A DNA stretch of 64,000 bases from assembly GCA_037389465.1 (NCBI GenBank), contig JAZARR010000087.1, forward strand, positions 1-64,000, written 5' to 3'. Position 1 is the first letter of the stretch. Every line of letters starts with the position of its first letter. Of this stretch, positions 14,716-49,503 are shown piece by piece. The DNA comes from Baylisascaris procyonis (taxonomy: Eukaryota > Nematoda > Chromadorea > Rhabditida > Ascarididae). Under the pieces are notes generated by a model. The model did not search any database. It was not told the origin of the DNA and worked only from the letters and a program-made list of their open reading frames with translations. A program made the translations under genes and the position numbers.

Positions 14716-14741
14716 TTACTAACCACTATACTGCTTGGCCC
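14716..14741 (-). pseudogene. Truncated tRNA-His at the left edge of the array
   Basis: Only the 5' third of a tRNA-His (acceptor 5' strand and D arm) is recognisable. It is followed rightwards by a normal spacer leading to the copy at 14867. Left of 14716 the similarity stops, which marks the array boundary. Confidence 0.75.
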
Positions 14742-16261
14742 ATTCGCTTCAGTGGCAAAGGAAGCCCGTGCAACAAACGCTCCATTCTCTGCACAATATG
14801 TGGGGGGATAGTTTCGTTCTCCATTGAACACGAACCGTCAAATTTTGACCCTGTTGCCGTGATTGGTGCCCAAGACAGGAATCGGACCTGTGTCGCCAGG
14901 GCCACAACGCGGAGTACTAACCACTATACTACTTGGGCCATTGGCTTCCCTGGGAAAGGAAGCCCGTGTCGAAAACGGCGTACACGACCGACTAACATAT
15001 GCGGTTGTGGCTTCCTTTTCCAATGAACACGAACCCTCAAATTTTGACCCGGTTGCCGTGATTGGTGCCCAAGGCAGGAATCGAACCTGTGTCGCCACGG
15101 CCACAACGTGGAGTTCTAGCCACTATACTACATGGGCCATTCGCTTTCGTGGGAAAGGAAGCCCGTGTCAAAAACGGCGTACACGACCGAGTAATATATG
15201 CGGGGGTGGTTTCCTTTTCCAACGAACACGAACCCTCAAATTTTGACCTGGTTGCAGTGACTGATGCCTAAGACAGGAATCGAACCTGTGTCGCCACGGC
15301 CACAACGTGGAGTACTAACCACTATACTACTTGGGCCATTCGCTTCCGTGGCAAAGGATGTCCGTGTCAGAAAAGGAGAACACGATCGATTAGTGTATGC
15401 GGAGGCTGGTTTCGTTTTCGAGTGCACACGAACCCTCAAATTTTGACCCGGTTGCCGTGATTTGTGCCAAAGACAGGAATCGAACCTGTGTCGCCACGGC
15501 CACAACGTGGAGTACTAAGCACTACACGACTTGGGCCGCACGCTTCCGTGGCAAAGGAAGCCCGTGTCAGAAAAGGCGAACACGATCGATTAGTGTATGC
15601 GGAGGCTGGTTTCGTTTTCGGGTGCACACGAACCCTCAAATTTTGACCCGGTTGCCGTGATTTGTGCCCAAGACAGGAATCGAACCAGGGTCGCCACGGC
15701 CACAACATGGAGTACTAACCACTATACTACTTGGGCCATTCGCTTCCGTGGCAAAGGAAGCCCGTGTCAGAAAAGGCGAACACGATCGATTAGTGTATGC
15801 GGAGGCTGGTTTCGTTTTCGGGTGCACACGAACCCTCAAATTTTGACCCGGTTGCCGTGATTTGTGCCCAAGACAGGAATCGAACCAGTGTCGCCACGGC
15901 CACAACATGGAGTACTAACCACTATACTACTTGGGCCATTCGCTTCCGTGGCAAAGGAAGCATGTGTCGAAAACGGCTTGCACGACCGGGTAATATATGC
16001 GCGGGTGGTTTCCTTTTCCAACGAACACGAACCCTCAAATTTTGACCTGGTTGCAGTGACTGACGCCCAAGACAGGAATCGAACCTGTGTCGCCACGGCC
16101 ACAACGTGGAGCACTAACCACTATACTACTTGGGCCATTCGCTTCCGTGGCAAAGGAAGCCTGTGTCGAAAACGGCGTTCACGACCGACTAATATATGCG
16201 GGTGTGGCTTCCTTTTCCAATGGACACGAACCTCAAATTTTAACCTGGTTGCAGTGACTGA

Positions 16262-16333
16262 TGCCCAAGACAGGAATCGAACCTGTGTCGCCACGGCCAC
16301 AACGTGGAGTACTAACCACTATACTACTTGGGC
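16262..16333 (-). tRNA. tRNA-His (GTG), exact consensus copy
   Basis: Matches the 72-nt consensus at every base. The 3' flank reads TCA instead of CCA. The first T4 run downstream is about 90 nt away. Confidence 0.9.
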
Positions 16334-16459
16334 CATTCGCTTTCGTGGGAAAGGAAGCCCGTGTCGAAAACGGCGTGTACGACCGACTAATATATGCGGG
16401 GGTGGCTTCCTTTTCCAATGAACACGAACCTCAAATTTTAACCTGGTTGCAGTGACTGA

Positions 16460-16531
16460 TGCCCAAGACATTAATCGAACCTGTGTCGCCACGGCCACAA
16501 GGTGGAGTACTAACCACTATACTACTGGGGC
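16460..16531 (-). pseudogene. tRNA-His variant class with broken B box (14 copies)
   Basis: On + the box reads ATTAATCGAACC instead of AGGAATCGAACC. This turns the last CC of the B box into AA and breaks two T-stem pairs. Members start at 16460, 20838, 22431, 23426, 24024, 24820, 26413, 27408, 28603, 29598, 30196, 30793, 32585 and 33580. TFIIIC binding and T-arm folding should both suffer, so these are probably silent. The copy at 16460 also has the C31-C39 mismatch. Confidence 0.8.
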
Positions 16532-16659
16532 CGCTCGCTTCTGTGGCAAAGGAAGCCCGTGTCAGAAAAGGCGAACACGATCGATTAGTGTATGCGGAGG
16601 CTGGTTTCGTTTTCGAGTGCACACGAACCCTAAAATTTTGACCCGGTTGCAGTGACTGA

Positions 16660-16731
16660 TGCCCAAGACAGGAATCGAACCTGTGTCGCCACGGCCACAA
16701 CGTGGAGTACTAACCACTATACTACTTGGGC
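16660..16731 (-). tRNA. tRNA-His (GTG), exact consensus copy
   Basis: Consensus at every base. The 3' flank is TCA. A T4 pol III terminator starts 25 nt downstream, so this copy could be a stand-alone gene. Confidence 0.92.
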
Positions 16732-17256: not shown

Positions 17257-17328
17257 TGCCCAAGACAGGAATCGAACCTGTGTCGCCACGGCCACAACGT
17301 GGAGTACTAACCACTATACTACTTGGGC
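17257..17328 (-). tRNA. tRNA-His (GTG), exact consensus copy
   Basis: Consensus at every base, TCA 3' flank, near T4 terminator. Its 5' flank is the shortened spacer variant (TTCGTTTCGTTGG on +). Confidence 0.92.
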
Positions 17329-20438: not shown

Positions 20439-20510
20439 TGCCCAAGACAGGAATCGAACCTGTGTCGCCACGGCCACAACGTGGAGTACTAACCACTATA
20501 CTACTTGGGC
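20439..20510 (-). tRNA. tRNA-His (GTG), exact consensus copy
   Basis: Exact copy with encoded CCA. Its higher-order counterpart is at 24421, 3982 bp away. Confidence 0.9.
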
Positions 20511-21634
20511 CATTCGCTTCCGTGGGAAAGGAAGCCCGTGTCGAAAACGGCGTACACGACCGACTAATATATGCGGTTGTGGCTTCCTTTTCCAATGAAC
20601 ACGAACCCTCAAATTTTGACCCGGTTGCCGTGATTTGTGCCCAAGACAGGGATCGAACCTGTGTCGCCACGGCCACAACGTGGAGTACTAACCACTATAC
20701 TACTTGGGCCGCTCGCTTCCGTGGCAAAGGAAGCCCGTGTCAGAAAAGGCGAACACGATCGATTAGTGTATGCGGAGGCTGGTTTCGTTTTCGAGTGCAC
20801 ACGAACCCTAAAATTTTGACCCGGTTGCAGTGACTGATGCCCAAGACATTAATCGAACCTGTGTCGCCACGGCCACAACGTGGAGTACTAACCACTATAC
20901 TACTTGGGCCATTCGCTTCCGTGGCAAAGGAAGCCCGTGTCGAAAACGGCGTACACGACCGACTAATATATGCGGGGGTGGCTCCCTTTTCCAATGAACA
21001 CGAACCCTCAAATTTTGACCCGGTTTCCGTGATTGGTGCCAAAGACAGGAATCGAACCTGTGTCGCCACGGCCACAACGTGGAGTACTAACCACTACACG
21101 ACTTGGGCCGCTCGCTTCCGTGGCAAAGGAAGCCCGTGTCAGAAAAGGCGAACACGATCGATTAGTGTATGCGGAGGCTGGTTTCGTTTTCGGGTGCACA
21201 CGAACCCTCAAATTTTGACCCGGTTCCCGTGATTTGTGCCCAAGACAGGAATCGAACCTGTGTCGCCACGGCCACAACGTGGAGTACTTATCACTATACT
21301 ACATGGGCCTGTCGCTTCCGTGGCAAAGGAAGACCGTATCAAAAACGGCGTACACGACCGAGTAATATATGCGGGGGTGGTTTCCTTTTCCAACGAACAC
21401 GAACCCTAAAATTTTGACCCGGTTGCAGTGACTGATGCCCAAGACAGGAATCGAACCTGTGTGGCCACGGCCACAACGTGGAGTACTAACCACTATACTA
21501 CTTGGGCCATTCGCTTTCGTTGGAAAGGAAGCCCGTGTCGAAAACGGCGTGCACGAGCGACTAATATATGCTTTTGTGGCTTCCTTTTCCAATGAACACG
21601 AACCCTCAAATTTTGACCCGGTTGCCGTGATTGG

Positions 21635-21706
21635 TGCCCAAGACAGGAATCGAACCTGTGTCGCCACGGCCACAACGTGGAGTACTAACCACTATACTAC
21701 TTGGGC
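21635..21706 (-). tRNA. tRNA-His (GTG), exact consensus copy
   Basis: Exact copy with encoded CCA; counterpart at 25617 (offset 3982 bp). Confidence 0.9.
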
Positions 21707-24420
21707 CATTCGCTTCTGTGGGAAAGGAAGCCCGTGTCGAAAACGGCGTACACGACCGACTAATATATGCGGTTGTGGCTTCCTTTTCCAATGAACACGA
21801 ACCCTCAAATTTTGACCCGGTTGCCGTGATTTGTGCCCAAGACAGGGATCGAACCTGTGTCGCCACGGCCACAACGTGGAGTACTTATCAATATACTACA
21901 TGGGCCTGTCGCTTCCGTGGCAAAGGAAGCCTGTGTCGAAAACGGCTTGCACGACCGAGTAATATATGCAGGGGTGGTTTCCTTTTCCAATGAACACGAA
22001 CCTCAAATTTTAACCTGGTTGCAGTGACTGATGCCCAAGACAGGAATCGAACCTGCGTCGCCACGGCCACAACGTGGAGTACTAACCACTATACTACTTG
22101 GGCCATTCGCTTCCGTGGGAAAGGAAGCCCGTGTCGAAAACGGCGTACACCCCCGACTAATATATGCGGTTGTGGCTTCCTTTTCCAATGAACACGAACC
22201 CTCAAATTTTGACCCGGTTGCCTTGATTGGTGCCCAAGACAGGAATCGAACCTGTGTCGCCACGGCCACAAGGTGGAGTACCAACCACTATACTACTTGG
22301 GCCGCTCGCTTCCGTGGCAAAGGAAGCCCGTGTCAGAAAAGGCGAACACGATCGATTAGTGTATGCGGAGGCTGGTTTCGTTTTCGAGTGCACACGAACC
22401 CTAAAATTTTGACCCGGTTGCAGTGACTGATGCCCAAGACATTAATCGAACCTGTGTCGCCACGGCCACAACGTGGAGTACTAACCACTATACTACTTGG
22501 GCCATTCGCTCTCGTGGGAAAGGAAGCCCGTGTCGAAAACGGCGTGCACGAGCGACTAATATATGCGGTTCTGGCTTCCTTTTCCAATGAACACGAACCC
22601 TCAAATTTTGACCCGGTTGCAGTGACTGATGCCCAAGACAGGAATCGAACCTGTGTCGCCACGGCCACAACGTGGAGTACTAACCACTATAGTACTTGGG
22701 CCATTCGCTTCCGTGGGAAAGGAAGCCCGTGTCGAAAACGGCGTACACGACCGACTAATATATGCGGTTGTGGCTTCCTTTTCCAACGAACACGAACCCT
22801 CAAATTTTGACCCGGTTGCCGTGATTGGTGCCCAAGACAGGAATCGAACCTGTGTCGCTACGGCCACAAGGTGGAGTACTAACCACTATACTACTTGGGC
22901 CATTCGCTTTCGTGGGAAAGGAAGCCCGTTTCGAAAACGGCGTATACGACCGACTAATATATGCGGGGGTGGCTTCCTTTTCCAATGAACACGAACCTCA
23001 AATTTTAACCTGGTTGCAGTGACTGATGCCCAAGACAGGAATCGAACCTGCGTCGCCACGGCCACAACGTGGAGTACTAACCACTATACTACTTGGGCCA
23101 TTCGCTTCCGTGGGAAAGGAAGCCCGTGTCGAAAACGGCGTACACGACCGACTAATATATGCGGTTGTGGCTTCCTTTTCCAACGAACACGAACCCTCAA
23201 ATTTTGACCCGGTTGCCGTGATTGGTGCCCAAGACAGGAATCGAACCTGTGTCGCTACGGCCACAAGGTGGAGTACTAACCACTATACTACTTGGGCCGC
23301 TCGCTTCCGTGGCAAAGGAAGCCCGTGTCAGAAAAGGCGAACACGATCGATTAGTGTATGCGGAGGCTGGTTTCGTTTTCGAGTGCACACGAACCCTAAA
23401 ATTTTGACCCGGTTGCAGTGACTGATGCCCAAGACATTAATCGAACCTGTGTCGCCACGGCCACAACGTGGAGTACTAACCACTATACTACTTGGGCCAT
23501 TCGCTTTCGTGGGAAAGGAAGCCCGTGTCGAAAACGGCGTGCACGAGCGACTAATATATGCGGGGGTGGCTTCCTTTTCCAATGAACACGAACCTCAAAT
23601 TTTAACCTGGTTGCAGTGACTGATGCCCAAGACAGGAATCGAACCTGTGTCGCCACGGCCACAAGGTGGAGTACTAACCACTATACTACTTGGGCCGCTC
23701 GCTTCTGTGGCAAAGGAAGCCCGTGTCAGAAAAGGCGAACACGATCGATTAGTGTATGCGGAGGCTGGTTTCGTTTTCGAGTGCACACGAACCCTAAAAT
23801 TTTGACCCGGTTGCAGTGACTGATGCCCAAGACAGGAATCGAACCTGTGTCGCCACGGCCACAAGGTGGAGTACTAACCACTACACTACTTGGGCCGCTC
23901 GCTTCTGTGGCAAAGGAAGCCCGTGTCAGAAAAGGCGAACACGATCGATTAGTGTATGCGGAGGCTGGTTTCGTTTTCGAGTGCACACGAACCCTAAAAT
24001 TTTGACCCGGTTGCAGTGACTGATGCCCAAGACATTAATCGAACCTGTGTCGCCACGGCCACAACGTGGAGTACTAACCACTATACTACTTGGGCCATTC
24101 GCTTTCGTGGCAAAGGAAGCCTGTGTCGAAAACGGCTTGCACGACCGAGTAATATATGCAGGGGTGGTTTCCTTTTCCAATGAACACGAACCTCAAATTT
24201 TAACCTGGTTGCAGTGACTGATGCCCAAGACAGGAATCGAACCTGCGTCGCCACGGCCACAACGTGGAGTACTAACCACTACACTACTTGGGCCATTCGC
24301 TTCCGTGGGAAAGGAAGCCCGTGTCGAAAACGGCGTACACCCCCGACTAATATATGCGGTTGTGGCTTCCTTTTCCAATGAACACGAACCCTCAAATTTT
24401 GACCCGGTTGCCGTGATTGG

Positions 24421-24492
24421 TGCCCAAGACAGGAATCGAACCTGTGTCGCCACGGCCACAACGTGGAGTACTAACCACTATACTACTTGGGC
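24421..24492 (-). tRNA. tRNA-His (GTG), exact consensus copy
   Basis: Exact copy with encoded CCA; counterpart of 20439. Confidence 0.9.
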
Positions 24493-25616
24493 CATTCGCT
24501 TCCGTGGGAAAGGAAGCCCGTGTCGAAAACGGCGTACACGACCGACTAATATATGCGGTTGTGGCTTCCTTTTCCAATGAACACGAACCCTCAAATTTTG
24601 ACCCGGTTGCCGTGATTTGTGCCCAAGACAGGGATCGAACCTGTGTCGCCACGGCCACAACGTGGAGTACTAACCACTATACTACTTGGGCCGCTCGCTT
24701 CCGTGGCAAAGGAAGCCCGTGTCAGAAAAGGCGAACACGATCGATTAGTGTATGCGGAGGCTGGTTTCGTTTTCGAGTGCACACGAACCCTAAAATTTTG
24801 ACCCGGTTGCAGTGACTGATGCCCAAGACATTAATCGAACCTGTGTCGCCACGGCCACAACGTGGAGTACTAACCACTATACTACTTGGGCCATTCGCTT
24901 CCGTGGCAAAGGAAGCCCGTGTCGAAAACGGCGTACACGACCGACTAATATATGCGGGGGTGGCTCCCTTTTCCAATGAACACGAACCCTCAAATTTTGA
25001 CCCGGTTTCCGTGATTGGTGCCAAAGACAGGAATCGAACCTGTGTCGCCACGGCCACAACGTGGAGTACTAACCACTACACGACTTGGGCCGCTCGCTTC
25101 CGTGGCAAAGGAAGCCCGTGTCAGAAAAGGCGAACACGATCGATTAGTGTATGCGGAGGCTGGTTTCGTTTTCGGGTGCACACGAACCCTCAAATTTTGA
25201 CCCGGTTCCCGTGATTTGTGCCCAAGACAGGAATCGAACCTGTGTCGCCACGGCCACAACGTGGAGTACTTATCACTATACTACATGGGCCTGTCGCTTC
25301 CGTGGCAAAGGAAGACCGTATCAAAAACGGCGTACACGACCGAGTAATATATGCGGGGGTGGTTTCCTTTTCCAACGAACACGAACCCTAAAATTTTGAC
25401 CCGGTTGCAGTGACTGATGCCCAAGACAGGAATCGAACCTGTGTGGCCACGGCCACAACGTGGAGTACTAACCACTATACTACTTGGGCCATTCGCTTTC
25501 GTTGGAAAGGAAGCCCGTGTCGAAAACGGCGTGCACGAGCGACTAATATATGCTTTTGTGGCTTCCTTTTCCAATGAACACGAACCCTCAAATTTTGACC
25601 CGGTTGCCGTGATTGG

Positions 25617-25688
25617 TGCCCAAGACAGGAATCGAACCTGTGTCGCCACGGCCACAACGTGGAGTACTAACCACTATACTACTTGGGC
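25617..25688 (-). tRNA. tRNA-His (GTG), exact consensus copy
   Basis: Exact copy with encoded CCA; counterpart of 21635. The related copy at 28005 has lost its acceptor stem. Confidence 0.9.
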
Positions 25689-28004
25689 CATTCGCTTCTG
25701 TGGGAAAGGAAGCCCGTGTCGAAAACGGCGTACACGACCGACTAATATATGCGGTTGTGGCTTCCTTTTCCAATGAACACGAACCCTCAAATTTTGACCC
25801 GGTTGCCGTGATTTGTGCCCAAGACAGGGATCGAACCTGTGTCGCCACGGCCACAACGTGGAGTACTTATCAATATACTACATGGGCCTGTCGCTTCCGT
25901 GGCAAAGGAAGCCTGTGTCGAAAACGGCTTGCACGACCGAGTAATATATGCAGGGGTGGTTTCCTTTTCCAATGAACACGAACCTCAAATTTTAACCTGG
26001 TTGCAGTGACTGATGCCCAAGACAGGAATCGAACCTGCGTCGCCACGGCCACAACGTGGAGTACTAACCACTATACTACTTGGGCCATTCGCTTCCGTGG
26101 GAAAGGAAGCCCGTGTCGAAAACGGCGTACACCCCCGACTAATATATGCGGTTGTGGCTTCCTTTTCCAATGAACACGAACCCTCAAATTTTGACCCGGT
26201 TGCCTTGATTGGTGCCCAAGACAGGAATCGAACCTGTGTCGCCACGGCCACAAGGTGGAGTACCAACCACTATACTACTTGGGCCGCTCGCTTCCGTGGC
26301 AAAGGAAGCCCGTGTCAGAAAAGGCGAACACGATCGATTAGTGTATGCGGAGGCTGGTTTCGTTTTCGAGTGCACACGAACCCTAAAATTTTGACCCGGT
26401 TGCAGTGACTGATGCCCAAGACATTAATCGAACCTGTGTCGCCACGGCCACAACGTGGAGTACTAACCACTATACTACTTGGGCCATTCGCTTTCGTGGG
26501 AAAGGAAGCCCGTGTCGAAAACGGCGTGCACGAGCGACTAATATATGCGGTTCTGGCTTCCTTTTCCAATGAACACGAACCCTCAAATTTTGACCCGGTT
26601 GCAGTGACTGATGCCCAAGACAGGAATCGAACCTGTGTCGCCACGGCCACGACGTGGAGTACTAACCACTATAGTACTTGGGCCATTCGCTTCCGTGGGA
26701 AAGGAAGCCCGTGTCGAAAACGGCGTACACGACCGACTAATATATGCGGTTGTGGCTTCCTTTTCCAACGAACACGAACCCTCAAATTTTGACCCGGTTG
26801 CCGTGATTGGTGCCCAAGACAGGAATCGAACCTGTGTCGCTACGGCCACAAGGTGGAGTACTAACCACTATACTACTTGGGCCATTCGCTTTCGTGGGAA
26901 AGGAAGCCCGTTTCGAAAACGGCGTATACGACCGACTAATATATGCGGGGGTGGCTTCCTTTTCCAATGAACACGAACCTCAAATTTTAACCTGGTTGCA
27001 GTGACTGATGCCCAAGACAGGAATCGAACCTGCGTCGCCACGGCCACAACGTGGAGTACTAACCACTATACTACTTGGGCCATTCGCTTCCGTGGGAAAG
27101 GAAGCCCGTGTCGAAAACGGCGTACACGACCGACTAATATATGCGGTTGTGGCTTCCTTTTCCAACGAACACGAACCCTCAAATTTTGACCCGGTTGCCG
27201 TGATTGGTGCCCAAGACAGGAATCGAACCTGTGTCGCTACGGCCACAAGGTGGAGTACTAACCACTATACTACTTGGGCCGCTCGCTTCCGTGGCAAAGG
27301 AAGCCCGTGTCAGAAAAGGCGAACACGATCGATTAGTGTATGCGGAGGCTGGTTTCGTTTTCGAGTGCACACGAACCCTAAAATTTTGACCCGGCTGCAG
27401 TGACTGATGCCCAAGACATTAATCGAACCTGTGTCGCCACGGCCACAACGTGGAGTATTAACCACTATACTACTTGGGCCATTCGCTTTCGTGGGAAAGG
27501 AAGCCCGTGTCGAAAACGGCGTGCACGAGCGACTAATATATGCGGGGGTGGCTTCCTTTTCCAATGAACACGAACCTCAAATTTTAACCTGGTTGCAGTG
27601 ACTGATGCCCAAGACAGGAATCGAACCTGTGTCGCCACGGCCACAAGGTGGAGTACTAACCACTATACTACTTGGGCCGCTCGCTTCTGTGGCAAAGGAA
27701 GCCCGTGTCAGAAAAGGCGAACACGATCGATTAGTGTATGCGGAGGCTGGTTTCGTTTTCGAGTGCACACGAACCCTAAAATTTTGACCCGGTTGCAGTG
27801 ACTGATGCCCAAGACAGGAATCGAACCTGTGTGGCCACGGCCACAACGTGGAGTACTAACCACTATACTACTTGGGCCATTCGCTTTCGTTGGAAAGGAA
27901 GCCCGTGTCGAAAACGGCGTGCACGAGCGACTAATATATGCTTTTGTGGCTTCCTTTTCCAATGAACACGAACCCTCAAATTTTGACCCGGTTGCCGTGA
28001 TTGG

Positions 28005-36038: not shown

Positions 36039-36562
36039 CGCTCGCTTCCGTGGCAAAGGAAGCCCGTGTCAGAAAAGGCGAACACGATCGATTAGTGTAT
36101 GCGGAGGCTGGTTTCGTTTTCGGGTGCACACGAACCCTCAAATTTTGACCCGGTTCCCGTGATTTGTGCCCAAGACAGGGATCGAACCTGTGTCGCCACG
36201 GCCACAACGTGGAGTACTTATCACTATACTACATGGGCCTGTCGCTTCCGTGGCAAAGGAAGCCCGTGTCGAAAACGGCGTGCACGACCGACTAATATAT
36301 GCGGTTGTGGTTCCTTTTCCAATGAACACGAACCCTCAAATTTTGACCCGGTTGCCGTGATTGGTGCCAAAGACAGGAATCGAACCTGTGTCGCCACGGC
36401 CACAACGTGGAGTACTAACCACTACACGACTTGGGCCATTCGCTTCCGTCGCAAAGGAAGCCCGTGTCGAAAGCGGCTTGCACGACCGAGTAAAATATGC
36501 AGGGGTGGTTTCCTGTTCCAATGAACACGAACCTCAAATTTTAACCTGGTTGCAGTGACTGA

Positions 36563-36634
36563 TGCCCAAGACAGGAATCGAACCTGCGTCGCCACGGCCG
36601 CAACGTGGAGTACTAGACACTATACTGCTTGGGC
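36563..36634 (-). pseudogene. His-type tRNA with anticodon GCG, copy 1 of 4
   Basis: The anticodon loop is TTGCGGC, so the anticodon is GCG (Arg CGC codon) on an otherwise tRNA-His body. The D loop reads AGTGTCTA, losing the GG pair. Acceptor and B box are intact. Confidence 0.75.
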
Positions 36635-38554
36635 CACTGGCTTCCCTGGCAAAGATACCGTGTCAGGAATGCTGTATCCCCTGCATTATTATGCTGCGGA
36701 CGCCCGGTTCTTTTTCCATTGAACACGAAACCTGAAATTTTGAACCGTTTGCAGTGACTGATGCCCAAGACAGGAATCGAACGTGTGTCGCCACGGCCAC
36801 AACGTGGAGTACTAACCACCATACTACTTGGGCCATTCGCTTCCGTGGCAAAGGAAGTCCGTGTCAGAAAAGGCGAACACGATCGATTAGTGTATGCGGA
36901 GGCTGGTTTCGTTTTCGAGTGCACACGAACCCTCAAATTTTCACCCGGTTGCCGTGATTTGTGCCCAAGACAGAAATCGAACCTGTGTCCCCACAGCCAC
37001 AACGTGGAGTACTAACCACTATACTACTTGGGCCATTCGCTTCCGTGGCAAAGGAAGCCCGTGTCAAAAACGGCGTACACGACCGATTAATATATGCGGG
37101 GGTGGTTTCCTTTTCCAACGAACACGAACCCTCAAATTTTGACCTGGTTGCAGTGACTGATGACCGAGACAGGAATCGAACCTGTGTCGCCACGGCCACA
37201 ACGTGGAGTGCTTATCACTATACTACTAGGGCCATTCGCTTCCGTGGCAAAGGAAGTCCGTGTCAGAAAAGGCGAACACGATCGATTAGTGTATGCGGAG
37301 GCTGGTTTCGTTTTCGAGTGCACACGAACCCTCAAATTTTGACCCGGTTGCCGTGATTGGTGTCCAAGACAGGAATCGAACCTGTGTCGCCACGGCCACA
37401 ACGTGGAGTACTAACCACTATACTACTTGGGCCATTCGTTTCCGTGGTAAAGGAAGCCCGTGTCGAAAACGGCGTACACGACCGAGTAATATATGCGGGG
37501 GTTTCTCCCTTTTCCAATGAACACGAACCCTCAAATTTTGACCCGGTTTCCGTGATTGGTGCCAAAGACAGGAATCGAACCTGTGTCGCCACGGCCACAA
37601 CGTGGAGTACTAACCACTACACGACTTGGGCCATTCGCTTCCGTGGGAAAGGAAGCCCGTGTCGAAAACGGCGTGCACGACCGACTAATATATGCGGTTG
37701 TGGCTTCCTTTTCCAATGAACACGAACCCTCAAATTTTGACCCGGTTGCCGTGATTGGTGCCCAAGACAGGAATCGAAACTGTGTCGCCACGGCCACAAC
37801 GTGGAGTACTAATCACTATACTACTTGGGCCATTCGCCTCCGTGGCAAAGGAAGCCCGTGTCGAAAACGGCGTACACGACCGACTAATATATGCGGTTGT
37901 GGCTTCCTTTTCCAATGAACACGAACCCTCAAATTTTGACCCGGTTGCCGTGATTGGTGCCCAAGACAGGAACCGAACCTGTGTCGCCACGGCCACAAGG
38001 TGGAGTACTAACCACTATACTACTTGGGCCATTCGCTTAGGTGGCATAGGAAGCCCGTGACGAAAACGGCGTACACGACCGACTAATATATGCGGGGTGG
38101 CTTCCTTTTCCAATGAACACGAACCCTCAAATTTTGACCCGGTTGCCGTGATTGGTGCCCAAGACAGGAATCGAACCTGTGTCGCCACCGCCACAACGTG
38201 GAGTACTAACCACTGCACGACTTGGGCCATTGGCTTCCGTGGCAAAGGAAGCCCGTGTCAGAAAAGGCGAACACGATCGATTAGTGTATGCGGAGGCTGG
38301 TTTCGTTTTCGAGTGCACACGAACCCTCAAATTTTGACCCGGTTGCCGTGATTTGTGCCCAAGACAGGGATCGAACCAGTGTCGCCACGGCCACAACATG
38401 GAGTACTAACCACTATACTACTTGGGCCATTCGCTTCCGTGGGAAAGGAAGCCCGTGTCGAAAACGGCGTGCACGAGAGACTAATATATGCGGTTCTGGC
38501 TTCCTTTTCCAATGAACAGGAACCCTCAAATTTTGACCCGGTTGCCGTGATTGG

Positions 38555-38626
38555 TGCCCAAGACAGGAATCGAACCTGTGTCGCCACGGCCACAACGTGG
38601 AGTACTAACCACTATACTACTTGGGC
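38555..38626 (-). tRNA. tRNA-His (GTG), exact consensus copy
   Basis: Exact copy with encoded CCA, apparently duplicated from 35768 together with its neighbours. Confidence 0.9.
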
Positions 38627-39750
38627 CATTCGCTTCCGTGGCAAAGATACCGTGTCAGGAATGCTGTATCCTCTGCATTATTATGCTGCGGGCGACAGGT
38701 TCTTTTTGCAATGAACACGAACCCACAGATTTTGAATTGTTTGCCGTGATTGGTGCCCAAGACAGGAACCGAACCTGTGTCGCCACGGCCACAAGGTGGA
38801 GTACTAACCACTATACTACTTGGGCCATTCGCTTAGGTGGCATAGGAAGCCCGTGACGAAAACGGCGTACACGACCGACTAATATATGCGGGGTGGCTTC
38901 CTTTTCCAATGAACACGAACCCTCAAATTTTGACCCGGTTGCCGTGATTGGTGCCCAAGACAGGAATCGAACCTGTGTCGCCACCGCCACAACGTGGAGT
39001 ACTAACCACTGCACGACTTGGGCCATTGGCTTCCGTGGCAAAGGAAGCCCGTGTCAGGAATGCTGTATCCCCTGCATTATTATGCTGCGGACGCCCGGTT
39101 CTTTTTCCATTGAACACGAAACCTGAAATTTTGAACCGGTTGCAGTGACTGGTGCCCAAGACAGGAATCGAACCTGTGTCGCCACGGCCACAAGGTGGAG
39201 TACTAACCACTATACTACTTGGGCCATTCGCTTCCGTGGCAAAGGAAGTCCGTGTCAGAAACGGCGAACACGATCGATTAGTGTATGCGGAGGCTGGTTT
39301 CGTTTTCGAGTGCACACGAACCCTCAAATTTTGACCCGGTTGCCGTGATTGGTGCCCAAGACAGAAATCGAAGCTGTGTCGCCACGGCCACAACGTGGAG
39401 TACTTATCACTATACTACATGGGCCTGTCGCTTCCGTGGCAAAGGAAACCCGTGTCAAAAACGGCGTACACGACCGAGTAATATATGCGGGGGTGGTTTC
39501 CTTTTCCAACGAACACGAACCCTCAAATTTTGACCTGGTTGCAGTGACTGATGCCCAAGACAGGAATCGAACCTGTGCCGCCACGGCCACAACGTGGAGT
39601 ACTAACCGCTATACTACTTGGGCCATTCCCTTCCGTGGCAAACGAAGCCCGCGTCGAAAACGGCGTGCACGAGCGACTAATATATGCTTTTGTGGCTTCC
39701 TTTTCCAATGAACACGAACCCTCAAATTTTGACCCGGTTGCCGTGATTGG

Positions 39751-39822
39751 TGCCCAAGACAGGAATCGAACCTGTGTCGCCACGGCCACAACGTGGAGTA
39801 CTAACCACTATACTACTTGGGC
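39751..39822 (-). tRNA. tRNA-His (GTG), exact consensus copy
   Basis: Exact copy with encoded CCA. Counterparts at 42739 and 45727 in the 2988-bp higher-order repeat. Confidence 0.9.
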
Positions 39823-40346
39823 CGCTCGCTTCCGTGGCAAAGGAAGCCCGTGTCAGAAAAGGCGAACACGATCGATTAGTGTATGCGGAGGCTGGTTTCG
39901 TTTTCGGGTGCACACGAACCCTCAAATTTTGACCCGGTTCCCGTGATTTGTGCCCAAGACAGGGATCGAACCTGTGTCGCCACGGCCACAACGTGGAGTA
40001 CTTATCACTATACTACATGGGCCTGTCGCTTCCGTGGCAAAGGAAGCCCGTGTCGAAAACGGCGTGCACGACCTACTAATATATGCGGTTGTGGTTCCTT
40101 TTCCAATGAACACGAACCCTCAAATTTTGACCCGGTTGCCGTGATTGGTGCCAAAGACAGGAATCGAACCTGTGTCGCCACGGCCACAACGTGGAGTACT
40201 AACCACTACACGACTTGGGCCATTCGCTTCCGTGGCAAAGGAAGCCCGTGTCGAAAGCGGCTTGCACGACCGAGTAAAATATGCAGGGGTGGTTTCCTGT
40301 TCCAATGAACACGAACCTCAAATTTTAACCTGGTTGCAGTGACTGA

Positions 40347-40418
40347 TGCCCAAGACAGGAATCGAACCTGCGTCGCCACGGCCGCAACGTGGAGTACTAG
40401 ACACTATACTGCTTGGGC
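40347..40418 (-). pseudogene. His-type tRNA with anticodon GCG, copy 2 of 4
   Basis: Same anticodon and D-loop changes as 36563; first unit of a 2988-bp higher-order repeat. Confidence 0.75.
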
Positions 40419-41542
40419 CACTGGCTTCCCTGGCAAAGATACCGTGTCAGGAATGCTGTATCCCCTGCATTATTATGCTGCGGACGCCCGGTTCTTTTTC
40501 CATTGAACACGAAACCTGAAATTTTGAACCGTTTGCAGTGACTGATGCCCAAGACAGGAATCGAACGTGTGTCGCCACGGCCACAACGTGGAGTACTAAC
40601 CACCATACTACTTGGGCCATTCGCTTCCGTGGCAAAGGAAGTCCGTGTCAGAAAAGGCGAACACGATCGATTAGTGTATGCGGAGGCTGGTTTCGTTTTC
40701 GAGTGCACACGAACCCTCAAATTTTCACCCGGTTGCCGTGATTTGTGCCCAAGACAGAAATCGAACCTGTGTCCCCACAGCCACAACGTGGAGTACTAAC
40801 CACTATACTACTTGGGCCATTCGCTTCCGTGGCAAAGGAAGCCCGTGTCAAAAACGGCGTACACGACCGATTAATATATGCGGGGGTGGTTTCCTTTTCC
40901 AACGAACACGAACCCTCAAATTTTGACCTGGTTGCAGTGACTGATGACCGAGACAGGAATCGAACCTGTGTCGCCACGGCCACAACGTGGAGTGCTTATC
41001 ACTATACTACTAGGGCCATTCGCTTCCGTGGCAAAGGAAGTCCGTGTCAGAAAAGGCGAACACGATCGATTAGTGTATGCGGAGGCTGGTTTCGTTTTCG
41101 AGTGCACACGAACCCTCAAATTTTGACCCGGTTGCCGTGATTGGTGTCCAAGACAGGAATCGAACCTGTGTCGCCACGGCCACAACGTGGAGTACTAACC
41201 ACTATACTACTTGGGCCATTCGTTTCCGTGGTAAAGGAAGCCCGTGTCGAAAACGGCGTACACGACCGAGTAATATATGCGGGGGTTTCTCCCTTTTCCA
41301 ATGAACACGAACCCTCAAATTTTGACCCGGTTTCCGTGATTGGTGCCAAAGACAGGAATCGAACCTGTGTCGCCACGGCCACAACGTGGAGTACTAACCA
41401 CTACACGACTTGGGCCATTCGCTTCTGTGGGAAAGGAAGCCCGTGTCGAAAACGGCGTGCACGACCGACTAATATATGCGGTTGTGGCTTCCTTTTCCAA
41501 TGAACACGAACCCTCAAATTTTGACCCGGTTGCCGTGATTGG

Positions 41543-41614
41543 TGCCCAAGACAGGAATCGAACCTGTGTCGCCACGGCCACAACGTGGAGTACTAACCAC
41601 TATACTACTTGGGC
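41543..41614 (-). tRNA. tRNA-His (GTG), exact consensus copy
   Basis: Exact copy with encoded CCA. The related copy at 37759 carries changes in the T stem and D loop; the one at 44531 is identical. Confidence 0.9.
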
Positions 41615-42738
41615 CATTCGCCTCCGTGGCAAAGGAAGCCCGTGTCGAAAACGGCGTACACGACCGACTAATATATGCGGTTGTGGCTTCCTTTTCCAAT
41701 GAACACGAACCCTCAAATTTTGACCCGGTTGCCGTGATTGGTGCCCAAGACAGGAACCGAACCTGTGTCGCCACGGCCACAAGGTGGAGTACTAACCACT
41801 ATACTACTTGGGCCATTCGCTTAGGTGGCATAGGAAGCCCGTGACGAAAACGGCGTACACGACCGACTAATATATGCGGGGTGGCTTCCTTTTCCAATGA
41901 ACACGAACCCTCAAATTTTGACCCGGTTGCCGTGATTGGTGCCCAAGACAGGAATCGAACCTGTGTCGCCACCGCCACAACGTGGAGTACTAACCACTGC
42001 ACGACTTGGGCCATTGGCTTCCGTGGCAAAGGAAGCCCGTGTCAGGAATGCTGTATCCCCTGCATTATTATGCTGCGGACGCCCGGTTCTTTTTCCATTG
42101 AACACGAAACCTGAAATTTTGAACCGGTTGCAGTGACTGGTGCCCAAGACAGGAATCGAACCTGTGTCGCCACGGCCACAAGGTGGAGTACTAACCACTA
42201 TACTACTTGGGCCATTCGCTTCCGTGGCAAAGGAAGTCCGTGTCAGAAACGGCGAACACGATCGATTAGTGTATGCGGAGGCTGGTTTCGTTTTCGAGTG
42301 CACACGAACCCTCAAATTTTGACCCGGTTGCCGTGATTGGTGCCCAAGACAGAAATCGAAGCTGTGTCGCCACGGCCACAACGTGGAGTACTTATCACTA
42401 TACTACATGGGCCTGTCGCTTCCGTGGCAAAGGAAACCCGTGTCAAAAACGGCGTACACGACCGAGTAATATATGCGGGGGTGGTTTCCTTTTCCAACGA
42501 ACACGAACCCTCAAATTTTGACCTGGTTGCAGTGACTGATGCCCAAGACAGGAATCGAACCTGTGCCGCCACGGCCACAACGTGGAGTACTAACCGCTAT
42601 ACTACTTGGGCCATTCCCTTCCGTGGCAAACGAAGCCCGCGTCGAAAACGGCGTGCACGAGCGACTAATATATGCTTTTGTGGCTTCCTTTTCCAATGAA
42701 CACGAACCCTCAAATTTTGACCCGGTTGCCGTGATTGG

Positions 42739-42810
42739 TGCCCAAGACAGGAATCGAACCTGTGTCGCCACGGCCACAACGTGGAGTACTAACCACTATA
42801 CTACTTGGGC
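42739..42810 (-). tRNA. tRNA-His (GTG), exact consensus copy
   Basis: Exact copy with encoded CCA, second member of the 39751/42739/45727 series. Confidence 0.9.
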
Positions 42811-43334
42811 CGCTCGCTTCCGTGGCAAAGGAAGCCCGTGTCAGAAAAGGCGAACACGATCGATTAGTGTATGCGGAGGCTGGTTTCGTTTTCGGGTGCA
42901 CACGAACCCTCAAATTTTGACCCGGTTCCCGTGATTTGTGCCCAAGACAGGGATCGAACCTGTGTCGCCACGGCCACAACGTGGAGTACTTATCACTATA
43001 CTACATGGGCCTGTCGCTTCCGTGGCAAAGGAAGCCCGTGTCGAAAACGGCGTGCACGACCTACTAATATATGCGGTTGTGGTTCCTTTTCCAATGAACA
43101 CGAACCCTCAAATTTTGACCCGGTTGCCGTGATTGGTGCCAAAGACAGGAATCGAACCTGTGTCGCCACGGCCACAACGTGGAGTACTAACCACTACACG
43201 ACTTGGGCCATTCGCTTCCGTGGCAAAGGAAGCCCGTGTCGAAAGCGGCTTGCACGACCGAGTAAAATATGCAGGGGTGGTTTCCTGTTCCAATGAACAC
43301 GAACCTCAAATTTTAACCTGGTTGCAGTGACTGA

Positions 43335-43406
43335 TGCCCAAGACAGGAATCGAACCTGCGTCGCCACGGCCGCAACGTGGAGTACTAGACACTATACTGC
43401 TTGGGC
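43335..43406 (-). pseudogene. His-type tRNA with anticodon GCG, copy 3 of 4
   Basis: Same changes; 2988 bp from copy 2. Confidence 0.75.
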
Positions 43407-44530
43407 CACTGGCTTCCCTGGCAAAGATACCGTGTCAGGAATGCTGTATCCCCTGCATTATTATGCTGCGGACGCCCGGTTCTTTTTCCATTGAACACGA
43501 AACCTGAAATTTTGAACCGTTTGCAGTGACTGATGCCCAAGACAGGAATCGAACGTGTGTCGCCACGGCCACAACGTGGAGTACTAACCACCATACTACT
43601 TGGGCCATTCGCTTCCGTGGCAAAGGAAGTCCGTGTCAGAAAAGGCGAACACGATCGATTAGTGTATGCGGAGGCTGGTTTCGTTTTCGAGTGCACACGA
43701 ACCCTCAAATTTTCACCCGGTTGCCGTGATTTGTGCCCAAGACAGAAATCGAACCTGTGTCCCCACAGCCACAACGTGGAGTACTAACCACTATACTACT
43801 TGGGCCATTCGCTTCCGTGGCAAAGGAAGCCCGTGTCAAAAACGGCGTACACGACCGATTAATATATGCGGGGGTGGTTTCCTTTTCCAACGAACACGAA
43901 CCCTCAAATTTTGACCTGGTTGCAGTGACTGATGACCGAGACAGGAATCGAACCTGTGTCGCCACGGCCACAACGTGGAGTGCTTATCACTATACTACTA
44001 GGGCCATTCGCTTCCGTGGCAAAGGAAGTCCGTGTCAGAAAAGGCGAACACGATCGATTAGTGTATGCGGAGGCTGGTTTCGTTTTCGAGTGCACACGAA
44101 CCCTCAAATTTTGACCCGGTTGCCGTGATTGGTGTCCAAGACAGGAATCGAACCTGTGTCGCCACGGCCACAACGTGGAGTACTAACCACTATACTACTT
44201 GGGCCATTCGTTTCCGTGGTAAAGGAAGCCCGTGTCGAAAACGGCGTACACGACCGAGTAATATATGCGGGGGTTTCTCCCTTTTCCAATGAACACGAAC
44301 CCTCAAATTTTGACCCGGTTTCCGTGATTGGTGCCAAAGACAGGAATCGAACCTGTGTCGCCACGGCCACAACGTGGAGTACTAACCACTACACGACTTG
44401 GGCCATTCGCTTCTGTGGGAAAGGAAGCCCGTGTCGAAAACGGCGTGCACGACCGACTAATATATGCGGTTGTGGCTTCCTTTTCCAATGAACACGAACC
44501 CTCAAATTTTGACCCGGTTGCCGTGATTGG

Positions 44531-44602
44531 TGCCCAAGACAGGAATCGAACCTGTGTCGCCACGGCCACAACGTGGAGTACTAACCACTATACTACTTGG
44601 GC
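44531..44602 (-). tRNA. tRNA-His (GTG), exact consensus copy
   Basis: Exact copy with encoded CCA, 2988 bp from its twin at 41543. Confidence 0.9.
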
Positions 44603-45726
44603 CATTCGCCTCCGTGGCAAAGGAAGCCCGTGTCGAAAACGGCGTACACGACCGACTAATATATGCGGTTGTGGCTTCCTTTTCCAATGAACACGAACCC
44701 TCAAATTTTGACCCGGTTGCCGTGATTGGTGCCCAAGACAGGAACCGAACCTGTGTCGCCACGGCCACAAGGTGGAGTACTAACCACTATACTACTTGGG
44801 CCATTCGCTTAGGTGGCATAGGAAGCCCGTGACGAAAACGGCGTACACGACCGACTAATATATGCGGGGTGGCTTCCTTTTCCAATGAACACGAACCCTC
44901 AAATTTTGACCCGGTTGCCGTGATTGGTGCCCAAGACAGGAATCGAACCTGTGTCGCCACCGCCACAACGTGGAGTACTAACCACTGCACGACTTGGGCC
45001 ATTGGCTTCCGTGGCAAAGGAAGCCCGTGTCAGGAATGCTGTATCCCCTGCATTATTATGCTGCGGACGCCCGGTTCTTTTTCCATTGAACACGAAACCT
45101 GAAATTTTGAACCGGTTGCAGTGACTGGTGCCCAAGACAGGAATCGAACCTGTGTCGCCACGGCCACAAGGTGGAGTACTAACCACTATACTACTTGGGC
45201 CATTCGCTTCCGTGGCAAAGGAAGTCCGTGTCAGAAACGGCGAACACGATCGATTAGTGTATGCGGAGGCTGGTTTCGTTTTCGAGTGCACACGAACCCT
45301 CAAATTTTGACCCGGTTGCCGTGATTGGTGCCCAAGACAGAAATCGAAGCTGTGTCGCCACGGCCACAACGTGGAGTACTTATCACTATACTACATGGGC
45401 CTGTCGCTTCCGTGGCAAAGGAAACCCGTGTCAAAAACGGCGTACACGACCGAGTAATATATGCGGGGGTGGTTTCCTTTTCCAACGAACACGAACCCTC
45501 AAATTTTGACCTGGTTGCAGTGACTGATGCCCAAGACAGGAATCGAACCTGTGCCGCCACGGCCACAACGTGGAGTACTAACCGCTATACTACTTGGGCC
45601 ATTCCCTTCCGTGGCAAACGAAGCCCGCGTCGAAAACGGCGTGCACGAGCGACTAATATATGCTTTTGTGGCTTCCTTTTCCAATGAACACGAACCCTCA
45701 AATTTTGACCCGGTTGCCGTGATTGG

Positions 45727-45798
45727 TGCCCAAGACAGGAATCGAACCTGTGTCGCCACGGCCACAACGTGGAGTACTAACCACTATACTACTTGGGC
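45727..45798 (-). tRNA. tRNA-His (GTG), exact consensus copy
   Basis: Exact copy with encoded CCA, third member of the 2988-bp series. Confidence 0.9.
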
Positions 45799-46322
45799 CG
45801 CTCGCTTCCGTGGCAAAGGAAGCCCGTGTCAGAAAAGGCGAACACGATCGATTAGTGTATGCGGAGGCTGGTTTCGTTTTCGGGTGCACACGAACCCTCA
45901 AATTTTGACCCGGTTCCCGTGATTTGTGCCCAAGACAGGGATCGAACCTGTGTCGCCACGGCCACAACGTGGAGTACTTATCACTATACTACATGGGCCT
46001 GTCGCTTCCGTGGCAAAGGAAGCCCGTGTCGAAAACGGCGTGCACGACCGACTAATATATGCGGTTGTGGTTCCTTTTCCAATGAACACGAACCCTCAAA
46101 TTTTGACCCGGTTGCCGTGATTGGTGCCAAAGACAGGAATCGAACCTGTGTCGCCACGGCCACAACGTGGAGTACTAACCACTACACGACTTGGGCCATT
46201 CGCTTCCGTGGCAAAGGAAGCCCGTGTCGAAAGCGGCTTGCACGACCGAGTAAAATATGCAGGGGTGGTTTCCTGTTCCAATGAACACGAACCTCAAATT
46301 TTAACCTGGTTGCAGTGACTGA

Positions 46323-46394
46323 TGCCCAAGACAGGAATCGAACCTGCGTCGCCACGGCCGCAACGTGGAGTACTAGACACTATACTGCTTGGGC
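46323..46394 (-). pseudogene. His-type tRNA with anticodon GCG, copy 4 of 4
   Basis: Same changes; 2988 bp from copy 3. The block right of it departs from the 15-unit pattern after two units. Confidence 0.75.
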
Positions 46395-49300
46395 CACTGG
46401 CTTCCCTGGCAAAGATACCGTGTCAGGAATGCTGTATCCCCTGCATTATTATGCTGCGGACGCCCGGTTCTTTTTCCATTGAACACGAAACCTGAAATTT
46501 TGAACCGTTTGCAGTGACTGATGCCCAAGACAGGAATCGAACGTGTGTCGCCACGGCCACAACGTGGAGTACTAACCACCATACTACTTGGGCCATTCGC
46601 TTCCGTGGCAAAGGAAGTCCGTGTCAGAAAAGGCGAACACGATCGATTAGTGTATGCGGAGGCTGGTTTCGTTTTCGAGTGCACACGAACCCTCAAATTT
46701 TCACCCGGTTGCCGTGATTTGTGCCCAAGACAGGGATCGAACCTGTGTCGCCACGGCCACAACGTGTAGTACTTATCACTATACTACTTGCGCCATTCGC
46801 TTCCGTGGCAAAGGAAGCCCGTGTCAGGAATGCTGTATCGTCTGCATTATTTTGCTGCGGGCGACAGGTTCTTTTTCCATTGAACACGAAACCTGAAATT
46901 TTGACCCGGTTGCCGTGATTGGTGCCCAAGACAGAAATCGAACCTGTGTCCCCACAGCCACAACGTGGAGTACTATCCACTATACTACTTGGGCCATTCG
47001 CTTCCGTGGCAAAGGAAGCCCGTGTCAAAAACGGCGTACACGACCGATTAATATATGCGGGGGTGGTTTCCTTTTCCAACGAACACGAACCCTCAAATTT
47101 TGACCTGGTTGCAGTGACTGATGACCAAGACAGGAATCGAACCTGTGTCGCCACGGCCACAACGTGGAGTGCTTATCACTATACTACTAGGGCCATTCGC
47201 TTCCGTGGCAAAGGAAGTCCGTGTCAGAAAAGGCGAACACGATCGATTAGTGTATGCGGAGGCTGGTTTCGTTTTCGAGTGCACACGAACCCTCAAATTT
47301 TGACCCGGTTGCCGTGATTGGTGTCCAAGACAGGAATCGAACCTGTGTCGCCACGGCCACAACGTGGAGTACTAACCACTATACTACTTGGGCCATTCGT
47401 TTCCGTGGTAAAGGAAGCCCGTGTCGAAAACGGCGTACACGACCGAGTAATATATGCGGGGGTTTCTCCCTTTTCCAATGAACGCGAACCCTCAAATTTT
47501 GACCCGGTTTCCGTGATTGGTGCCAAAGACAGGAATCGAACCTGTGTCGCCACGGCCACAACGTGGAGTACTAACCACTACACGACTTGGGCCATTCGCT
47601 TCCGTGGGAAAGGAAGCCCGTGTCGAAAACGGCGTGCACGACCGACTAATATATGCGGTTGTCGCTTCCTTTTCCAATGAACACGAACCCTCAAATTTTG
47701 ACCCGGTTGCCGTGATTGGTGCCCAAGACAGAAATCGAAGCTGTGTCGCCACAGCCACAACGTGGAGTACTAACCACTATACTAGTTGGGCCATTCGCTT
47801 CCGTGGCAAAGGAAGCCCGTCGAAAACGACGTACACGACCGACTAATATATGCGGTTGTGGCTTCCTTTTCCAATGAACACGAACCCTCAAATTTTGACC
47901 CGGTTGCCGTGATTTGTGCCCAAGACAGGGATCGAACCTGTGTCGCCACGGCCACAACGTGGAGTACTAACCACTATACTACTTGGGCCATTCGCTTCCG
48001 TGGCAAAGGAAGCCCGTGTCAGGAATGCTGTATCCCCTGCATTATTATGCTGCGGACGCCCGGTTCCTTTTCCATTGAACACGAAACCTGAAATTTTGAA
48101 CCGGTTGCAGTGACTGGTGCCCAAGACAGGAATCGAACCTGTGTCTCCACGGCCACAACGTGGAGTACTAACCACTATATTACTTGGGCCATTCGCTTCC
48201 GTGGCAAAGGAAGCCCGTGTCGAAAACGGCGTACACGACCGACTAATATATGCGGGGGTGGCTTCCTTTTCCAATGAACACGAACCCTCAAATTTTGACC
48301 TGGTTGCAGTGACTGATGCCCAAGACAGGAATCGAACCTGCGTCGCCACGGCCACAACGTGGAGTACTAACCACTACACGATTTGGGCCATTGGCTTCCG
48401 TGGCAAAGGAAGCCCGTGTCAGGAATGCTGTATCCCGTGCATTATTATGCTGCGGACGCGCGGTTCTTTTTCCATTGAACACGAAACCTGAAATTTTGAA
48501 CCGGTTGCACTGACTGGTGCCCAAGACAGGAATCGAACCTGTGTCTCCACGGCCACAGCGTGGAGTACTAACCACTATACTACTTGGGCCATTCGCTTCC
48601 GTGGCAAAGGAAGCCCGTGTCGAAAGCGGCGTACACGACCGACTAATATATGCGGGGGTTACTTCCTTTTCCAATGAACACGAACCTCAAATTTTGACCT
48701 GGTTGCAGTGACTGATGCCCAAGACAGGAATCGAACCTGTGTCGCCACGGCCACAACGTGGAGTACTAACCACTATACTTCTTGGGCCATTCGCTTCCGT
48801 GCAAAGGAAGCCCTATCGAAAACGGCGTACACGATGGACTAATATATGCCCGGGCTGGTTTCGTTTTCGAATGAACACGAACCCTCAAATTTTGACCCGG
48901 TTGCCGTGATTGGTGCCCAAGACAGGAATCGAACCTGCGTCGCCACGGCCACAACGTGGAGTACTAACCACTACACTACTTGGGCCATTCGCTTAAGTGG
49001 CAAAAAAGCCCATGTCAGAAACGGCAAACACGATCGACTAATATATGCGGGGGCTGGTTTCGTTTTCGAATGAACACGAACCCTCATGTTTTGACCTGGT
49101 TGGAGTGACTGATGCCCAAGACAGGAATCGAACCTGTGTCGCCACGGCCACAACGTGGAGTACTAATCACTATACTACTTGGGCATTCGCTTCCGTGCAA
49201 AGGAAGCCCTATCGAAAACGGCGTACACGATCGACTAATATATGCGGAGGCTGGTTTCGTTTTCGAATGCACACGAACCCTCAAATTTTGACCTGGTTGC

Positions 49301-49503
49301 AGTGACCGATGCCCAAGACAGGAATCGAACCTGTTTCACCACGGCCACAACGTGGAGTACTAACCACTATACTACTTGGGCGATCAGCTTCCCTGGCGAA
49401 GGAAGCCGGTGCAAAAAACGGTGTAGAGGAGAGCTGATATACGCGAGGTCTGCTTTCCTTTTGCAATGAACACGAACCCTCAAATTTTGATCTCGTTGCA
49501 GCG

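What the first reader, a model, noticed from the sequence alone, without database searches (positions are those of the whole stretch)
14716..49503. A 174-copy tandem array of tRNA-His genes
One tRNA gene per 199 bp for nearly 35 kb, all on one strand and of one isotype. Animal genomes usually hold on the order of ten to twenty dispersed tRNA-His genes. Large single-isotype tRNA arrays are known in a few organisms, but I know of no described tRNA-His array of this kind. At least 25 copies are exact, with perfect A and B boxes, so a large functional dose is possible.
Basis: partly seen in the sequence, partly recalled or inferred. Interest (0 to 1): 0.95.

Follow-up and report, generated by a model that had tools for sequence, protein, structure and literature searches.

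The report
Giant tRNA-histidine gene array in nematode
A roundworm genome carries about 174 head-to-tail copies of one transfer-RNA gene; this is real, resembles tRNA arrays already seen in another roundworm and in amoebae, and the same genome holds at least five more such arrays for other tRNAs.

Summary
174 tRNA-like units, all on the minus strand, sit every 197-201 bp; 170 of 174 carry GTG and 25 are exact copies of a tRNA-His found at four other places in the genome. Two overlapping contigs carry the array, with 174 and an inferred 170 units and hybrid units at both length changes. So it is unlikely to be an artefact and changes by unequal exchange. SL1 matches mark the host as a nematode.

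Most units are not demonstrably working genes: 58 of 174 keep cloverleaf pairing plus key motifs; 26 of 174 have a near TTTT terminator. Rare mutations are as dense in tRNA as in spacer, yet the three main spacer types, differing at 18-30 of 127 sites, share one tRNA consensus. I read it as a tRNA-gene satellite whose tRNA was held constant by selection or conversion.

It is not the first of its kind: Nippostrongylus has tRNA-Trp (about 150 x 200 bp) and tRNA-Ser arrays, and Entamoeba has single-gene His(GTG) arrays. New here: the same genome holds at least five further tRNA arrays (Asn twice, Leu, Arg, intron-bearing Leu-like) with unrelated spacers.

The parts
14717..49490 (-). Tandem array, 199-bp unit = 72-nt tRNA-His + about 127-bp spacer, 174 tRNA copies
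14867..14938 (-). Leftmost full tRNA copy (69 of 72 bases canonical); a partial unit lies to its left
16262..16333 (-). First of 25 copies identical to the dispersed tRNA-His genes (others start at 16660, 17257, 17853, 19246, 19843, 20439, 21635, 24421, 25617, 30992, 31987, 32784, 33779, 34177, 34573, 35170, 35768, 35967, 38555, 39751, 41543, 42739, 44531, 45727)
49310..49381 (-). Rightmost full tRNA copy (70 of 72)
36167..47393 (-). Region with a 15-unit (2,988 bp) higher-order repeat; GCG-anticodon copies at 36563, 40347, 43335, 46323 mark it (approximate edges)
20439..26484 (-). Clearest part of a 20-unit (3,982 bp) higher-order repeat: 11 consecutive units (24421-26484) identical to those 20 units away (20439-22502)
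46125..46793 (-). Four units that correspond to one hybrid unit in contig C212 (loss of 3)
48914..49184 (-). Two units that correspond to one hybrid unit in contig C212 (loss of 1)
2682..3299 (+). Left flank: ORF with NFACT_N domain; a host gene (NEMF/Rqc2-like is my recalled label)
56847..63810 (+). Right flank: separate retrotransposon ORFs (DUF1759, DUF1758, RVT_1, Integrase_H2C2, and rve below its cut-off; three further ORFs without Pfam match); Bel/Pao-like is a recalled label; not part of the array

Best explanation
This is a tRNA-gene satellite in a nematode. One genuine tRNA-His gene, with about 127 bp of neighbouring DNA, was duplicated head to tail and then expanded by unequal exchange into about 174 units with nested higher-order repeats. 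The tRNA sequence was held constant, by purifying selection and/or conversion, while spacer types diverged. Rare (recent) mutations now hit tRNA and spacer alike, so single copies are largely redundant. A minority of intact copies probably still makes tRNA-His, adding to the dispersed genes; the bulk is spare or decaying. Shown: structure, copy numbers, two length forms with hybrid units, divergence patterns, sister arrays for other tRNAs in the genome. Inferred: how it first arose, selection versus conversion, residual transcription.
For: Canonical sequence equals 4 dispersed copies exactly; the 3 fetched carry TTTT 7, 18 and 22 nt downstream. Fifteen- and 20-unit higher-order repeats with runs of up to 21 and 11 identical units. 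C212 is 4 units shorter than C87 in two places; at each, one unit matches one C87 neighbour in its first part and another in the rest, the switch lying inside the tRNA (between bases 19-47 and 28-58). A spacer 27-mer with up to 3 mismatches occurs 114 + 114 times genome-wide; C87 holds all 114 of one strand (113 in the window, 1 in a relic), and of the other 114 I can place 27 directly in fetched C212/C211 pieces and 86 by assuming that the unread C212 middle equals C87, leaving 1. Divergence from consensus 3.0% in tRNA, 10.3% in spacer (98 distinct units). The three main spacer clusters differ at 18-30 of 127 sites, tRNA consensus at 0 of 72. Singletons per site 0.403 tRNA, 0.409 spacer; variants in at least 20 of 98 units: 0 in tRNA, 23 in spacer. 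Five more tRNA arrays with unrelated spacers; in the pieces read, tRNA is less diverged than spacer in 4 of 4 arrays measured.
Against: No expression data. The frequency contrast weakens when linked spacer variants are merged: Fisher p 0.12, 0.020 or 0.0025 depending on the linkage cut-off. Mutation types break pairs as chance predicts, 30 against 29.7 expected, and distinct copies hold 63 mispairs against 66.1 +/- 5.3, so no present-day structural selection is seen. Closest pairs show no tRNA depletion (share 0.38-0.52 against 0.36). Small spacer clusters of 1-2 units differ from the canonical tRNA at 1-3 sites. Selection and conversion were not separated.
Confidence: 0.62

Rival explanations
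1. Dosage array: the array is kept because it supplies large amounts of tRNA-His, for example in oocytes or early embryos, as arrayed tRNA genes do in Xenopus.
For: 25 exact and 58 structurally complete copies; tRNA constant across the main spacer types; other isotypes arrayed too; [quoted passage not shown]
Against: Mutations are not filtered by structure; 107 of 174 copies carry at least one mispair; near TTTT in only 26 of 174; 25 exact is about Poisson.
Confidence: 0.2
2. Chromatin element: arrayed A/B boxes bind TFIIIC and act as boundary, anchoring or replication elements regardless of tRNA output.
For: B box GGTTCGANNCC in 142 of 174 copies; unit lengths of 193-230 bp in all six arrays found, near a nucleosome repeat length (recalled comparison); a human tRNA tandem repeat is proposed as a boundary (PMC4041453, abstract and passages).
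Against: The whole tRNA, not just its boxes, is constant between the main spacer types; the common period is partly forced by my search range of 186-216 bp.
Confidence: 0.13
3. Assembly artefact or misassembled repeat.
For: The three contigs C87, C211 and C212 overlap at about 99.9% identity, so assembly redundancy exists here. No reads could be examined.
Against: Units are heterogeneous (98 distinct of 174), ordered, anchored in flanks, and their exact copies reappear in the same order in C212 with local unit differences.
Confidence: 0.03

Closest known systems
tRNA VeCTRs of Nippostrongylus brasiliensis (PMC5765664; abstract and passages seen)
   Same: Nematode; single-isotype head-to-tail tRNA arrays; about 150 copies of an approximately 200-bp unit (tRNA-Trp) and 90 copies of a tRNA-Ser unit with 80-bp spacer; spacers reported as unique to the species.
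   Different: Isotype His here (plus Asn, Leu, Arg elsewhere in the genome); the passages seen name no His, Asn, Leu or Arg array. Whether the window is from that species is unknown.
Entamoeba tRNA gene arrays, including single-gene unit [H-GTG] (PMC2652664; abstract and passages seen)
   Same: A tandem array whose unit holds a single tRNA-His(GTG) gene.
   Different: E. histolytica arranges almost all tRNA genes in arrays, often several genes per unit, with short tandem repeats between genes, and the authors saw no clear evidence of pseudogene copies; here dispersed copies exist and 149 of 174 array copies are altered.
Human 1q23.3 tRNA variable tandem repeat (PMC4041453; abstract and passages seen)
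   Same: Tandem tRNA repeat with copy-number variation.
   Different: 7.3-kb unit with five mixed tRNA genes and a CTCF site, 9-43 copies.
Xenopus oocyte-specific arrayed tRNA genes (PMC11500080; passages seen)
   Same: Tandemly arrayed tRNA genes in an animal.
   Different: Active at zygotic genome activation there; no expression data here.

Membership tests
Nematode tRNA VeCTR (as in N. brasiliensis) | Host is a nematode | tested here: met
   SL1 22-mer (typed from recall): 333 + 648 exact matches, reversed-pattern control 0 + 0; species not identified
Nematode tRNA VeCTR (as in N. brasiliensis) | Long single-isotype head-to-tail tRNA repeat, unit near 200 bp, about 100 copies or more | tested here: met
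   174 copies, 197-201 bp
Nematode tRNA VeCTR (as in N. brasiliensis) | Spacer without relatives elsewhere | tested here: inconclusive
   Within this genome the spacer 27-mer is placed at this locus for 227 of 228 matches, 86 of them by assumption about unread C212 sequence; no hit among the six array spacers at E<0.01 in 15 of 15 pairs. Other species were not searched
Satellite DNA | Higher-order repeats and length polymorphism | tested here: met
   15- and 20-unit repeats; 174 versus an inferred 170 units with hybrid units
Working tRNA-His gene | Cloverleaf, GTG anticodon, A73, U33, B box | tested here: met
   58 of 174 copies; 25 exact; not met by the other 116
Working tRNA-His gene | Pol III terminator soon after the gene | tested here: not met
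   TTTT within 30 nt in 26 of 174 (6 of the 25 exact copies); 131 of 174 have it at 31-127 nt, 17 not before the next unit
Working tRNA-His gene | Transcribed, processed, charged | not testable with these tools
   no RNA data held
Entamoeba-type tRNA array genome | Nearly all tRNA genes arrayed | tested here: inconclusive
   Six arrays found; four exact tRNA-His copies are dispersed; the Rfam tRNA scan of the genome did not complete
tRNA-derived SINE | Dispersed copies of head plus body | tested here: not met
   The body (spacer) was not found dispersed: one match of 228 remains unplaced

The most novel reading that the evidence does not exclude
This nematode has independently turned several tRNA genes (His, Asn twice, Leu, Arg, an intron-bearing Leu) into single-isotype tandem arrays with units near 200 bp, an animal counterpart of the Entamoeba arrangement, in which arrays act as dedicated tRNA sources for some life stage and chromatin periodicity sets the unit length.
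Probability: 0.2. Interest if true: 0.85.

Novelty: new member of a known kind. Interest (0 to 1): 0.6.

Why it matters
It shows that the tRNA arrays reported from one nematode are not limited to Trp and Ser, and that one genome can hold six of them with unrelated spacers. That makes testable whether tRNA genes repeatedly seed satellites, whether such arrays are transcribed, and why units lie near 200 bp. It also warns that raw tRNA gene counts from long-read nematode genomes can be inflated by altered copies.

Tried and rejected
Rejected: SINE (spacer not found dispersed). Rejected: a conserved spacer RNA hairpin; it folds little better than shuffles (z -1.49, 17 of 200 shuffles as good). Rejected: exactness as proof of selection (25 seen, 20.5 expected). 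Rejected: compensatory evolution: changes on both sides of a pair in 8 copies of three kinds, of which only one kind, in 1 copy, restores a standard pair. Discarded: the first pairing run used a structure shifted by one base; redone; its singleton counts do not depend on the structure. Failed: tRNA-Trp test with recalled 39-mer and 29-mer cores, no match at all, so uninformative. Failed: a script stopped with an error at the intron array after printing the Leu and Arg results; the rest redone. B-box pairs 155-185 bp apart: 248 + 309 matches, control 0 + 4; in the capped list 3 rows belong to the Leu array and the others look, by their printed letters, like one dispersed satellite family; the single piece of it fetched is no tRNA by ARAGORN and Rfam. 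Periods under 155 and over 216 bp were not searched. SL1-bearing loci L031 and L032 gave no Rfam match.
Full report
OBSERVATION. The window holds a tandem array at 14717-49490 with a 199-bp period and 174.7 copies. ARAGORN finds 174 tRNA genes, all on the minus strand: 169 His, 4 Arg(GCG), 1 Thr(TGT). Rfam gives 174 matches above the gathering score; the rows listed are RF00005, best 69.8 bits, canonical copies 67.3 bits, 24 lower ones not shown. My own alignment finds 174 copies, none worse than 66 of 72 bases, 25 exact, at spacings of 197-201 bp.

WHERE. The genome (G000, 272.8 Mb, 293 contigs) is a nematode: the 22-nt SL1 sequence (typed from recall) matches exactly 333 + 648 times, reversed control 0 + 0. 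The species is not known to me. The window is part of contig C87 (116.6 kb). C87, C212 and C211 overlap at about 99.9% identity. The exact 72-mer occurs 54 times: 25 in C87, 25 in C212 in the same order, and four dispersed (two in C212, one each in C228 and C246). C212 carries the same array. I read its first 22 units (the last one cut) and its last 17. Two places are shorter than C87, by one and by three units. At each, a single C212 unit agrees with one C87 unit up to base 47 or 58 and with another from base 19 or 28 on (one further difference in the first case), so the exchange lies within the tRNA; one more unit differs by a single-base gap. Hence 174 against an inferred 170; the unread middle of C212 was compared only through exact-copy positions. 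This fits two haplotypes differing by unequal exchange and makes an artefact unlikely.

DISPERSED COPIES VERSUS ARRAY. Three of the four dispersed copies were fetched, 10 kb each; each piece holds one tRNA gene, called His, with TTTT 7, 18 and 22 nt downstream (counted on the sequences printed). In the array, TTTT lies within 30 nt in 26 of 174 units, at 31-127 nt in 131, and not before the next unit in 17. Base -1 is G in 172 of 174 and base 73 is A in 173 of 174.

COPY QUALITY. GTG anticodon 170, perfect A box 107, perfect B box 125, B-box consensus 142, all 21 pairs 67, at most one mispair 135 of 174; 58 meet anticodon, A73, U33, pairing and B box together.

EVOLUTION. Higher-order repeats of 15 and 20 units are plain. 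Over 98 distinct units, tRNA diverges 3.0% and spacer 10.3% from consensus. Singletons are equally dense in tRNA and spacer, 0.403 and 0.409 per site. Variants in at least 20 of 98 units number 0 in tRNA and 23 in spacer (Fisher against rare classes p = 5.6e-5); merging linked variants weakens this to p = 0.12, 0.020 or 0.0025 by cut-off. The three main spacer clusters (113, 48 and 12 units) differ at 18-30 of 127 sites and not at all in tRNA consensus; finer clusters of one or two units differ at 1-3 of 72. Against present selection: substitutions break pairs as often as chance predicts (30 against 29.7) and near-identical pairs show no tRNA depletion. The simplest reading is past selection or conversion on the tRNA with little selection on each copy now.

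SISTER ARRAYS. Pairs of B boxes 186-216 bp apart (the box chosen so as to skip the His array) occur 367 + 311 times against 16 + 5 for the reversed pattern; a narrower form gives 126 + 103 against 16 + 5. Fetched pieces prove five further arrays. (a) tRNA-Asn in C48: listed pairs run from 441.1 to 477.7 kb with a gap at 448.7-457.3 kb; 441.0-446.0 kb was read and holds 22 ARAGORN genes. (b) A second tRNA-Asn array in C48: listed pairs from 709.1 to 735.4 kb, where the list ends; 727.0-731.0 kb was read, 13 genes. (c) tRNA-Leu(AAG mostly) at C94:28.3-45.2 kb, 199-bp unit, both ends read. (d) tRNA-Arg(TCT) at C186:2835.8-2841.4 kb, 212-bp unit, both ends read. (e) An intron-bearing Leu-like tRNA at C191 from 451.2 kb, 208-209-bp unit, upper end not read (11 Rfam matches of 117-118 nt, none by ARAGORN; anticodons CAA/TAA read by eye). 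The six spacers (consensus, or one unit for the intron array) show no blastn hit to each other at E<0.01 in 15 of 15 pairs. In the pieces read, tRNA diverges less than spacer in 4 of 4 arrays measured: 0.040/0.086 and 0.069/0.173 (Asn), 0.018/0.092 (Leu) and 0.010/0.034 (Arg); the intron array was not measured.

LITERATURE. N. [quoted passage not shown] Entamoeba's His(GTG) gene forms a one-gene array unit in all four columns of the table row shown (PMC2652664, passages). The listings of searches showed me no nematode tRNA-His array; the library holds open-licence papers only. In the review 'Nematode chromosomes' a term search finds no word beginning with tRNA (PMC9071541).

VERDICT. A real tRNA-His satellite, a new member of a known kind; the more interesting result is that at least six such arrays, for four amino acids (the Leu label of the intron array being by eye), share this genome. 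Function is not shown.

Noticed in passing
G000:C48:441.1-477.7 kb (L034) and C48:709.1-735.4+ kb (L035): Two tRNA-Asn(GTT) tandem arrays on opposite strands with unrelated spacers (about 194 and 229 bp units); only 5 kb and 4 kb of them were read.
   Followed up: partly
G000:C94:28.3-45.2 kb (L036, L039): tRNA-Leu(AAG) array, 199-bp unit, same period as the His array but unrelated spacer; first TTTT at 52 nt in 14 of 14 copies read.
   Followed up: partly
G000:C186:2835.8-2841.4 kb (L037, L041, L042): tRNA-Arg(TCT) array, 212-bp unit, TTTT 13-14 nt after the gene in 11 of 11 copies measured.
   Followed up: partly
G000:C191:451.2-453.4+ kb (L038): Array of an intron-bearing Leu-like tRNA; two quite different introns sit in near-identical exons, suggesting the mature tRNA is what is conserved.
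   Followed up: partly
C87:71427-71898 (L009:7427-7898): Three diverged units (57-65 of 72 bases) with a related spacer, 22 kb from the array on the same strand; also in C211 and C212. Probably a relic array.
   Followed up: partly
C82:5451001-5451400 (L043); similar listed letters in C6, C8, C32, C74, C88, C151: Dispersed satellite of roughly 162-175 bp carrying a B-box-like GGTTCGACCCC after a small hairpin; the piece fetched is not called as tRNA. Possibly an old tRNA-derived satellite.
   Followed up: partly
G000, e.g. C78:125-165 kb, C89:532-552 kb: Exact SL1 22-mers recur every about 6.57 kb in several contigs and every about 1.11 kb in C89. One 3-kb piece at such a 6.57-kb site (L032) and one at a lone site (L031) gave no Rfam match.
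   Followed up: no
C87, C211 end, C212 start: Three contigs overlap at about 99.9% identity, with 3.7 kb present in C212 and absent from C87, so the assembly keeps more than one haplotype here.
   Followed up: partly
window 36563, 40347, 43335, 46323: Four higher-order-repeat copies carry a GCG (Arg) anticodon in a His-type tRNA; a mutant anticodon amplified with its block.
   Followed up: no
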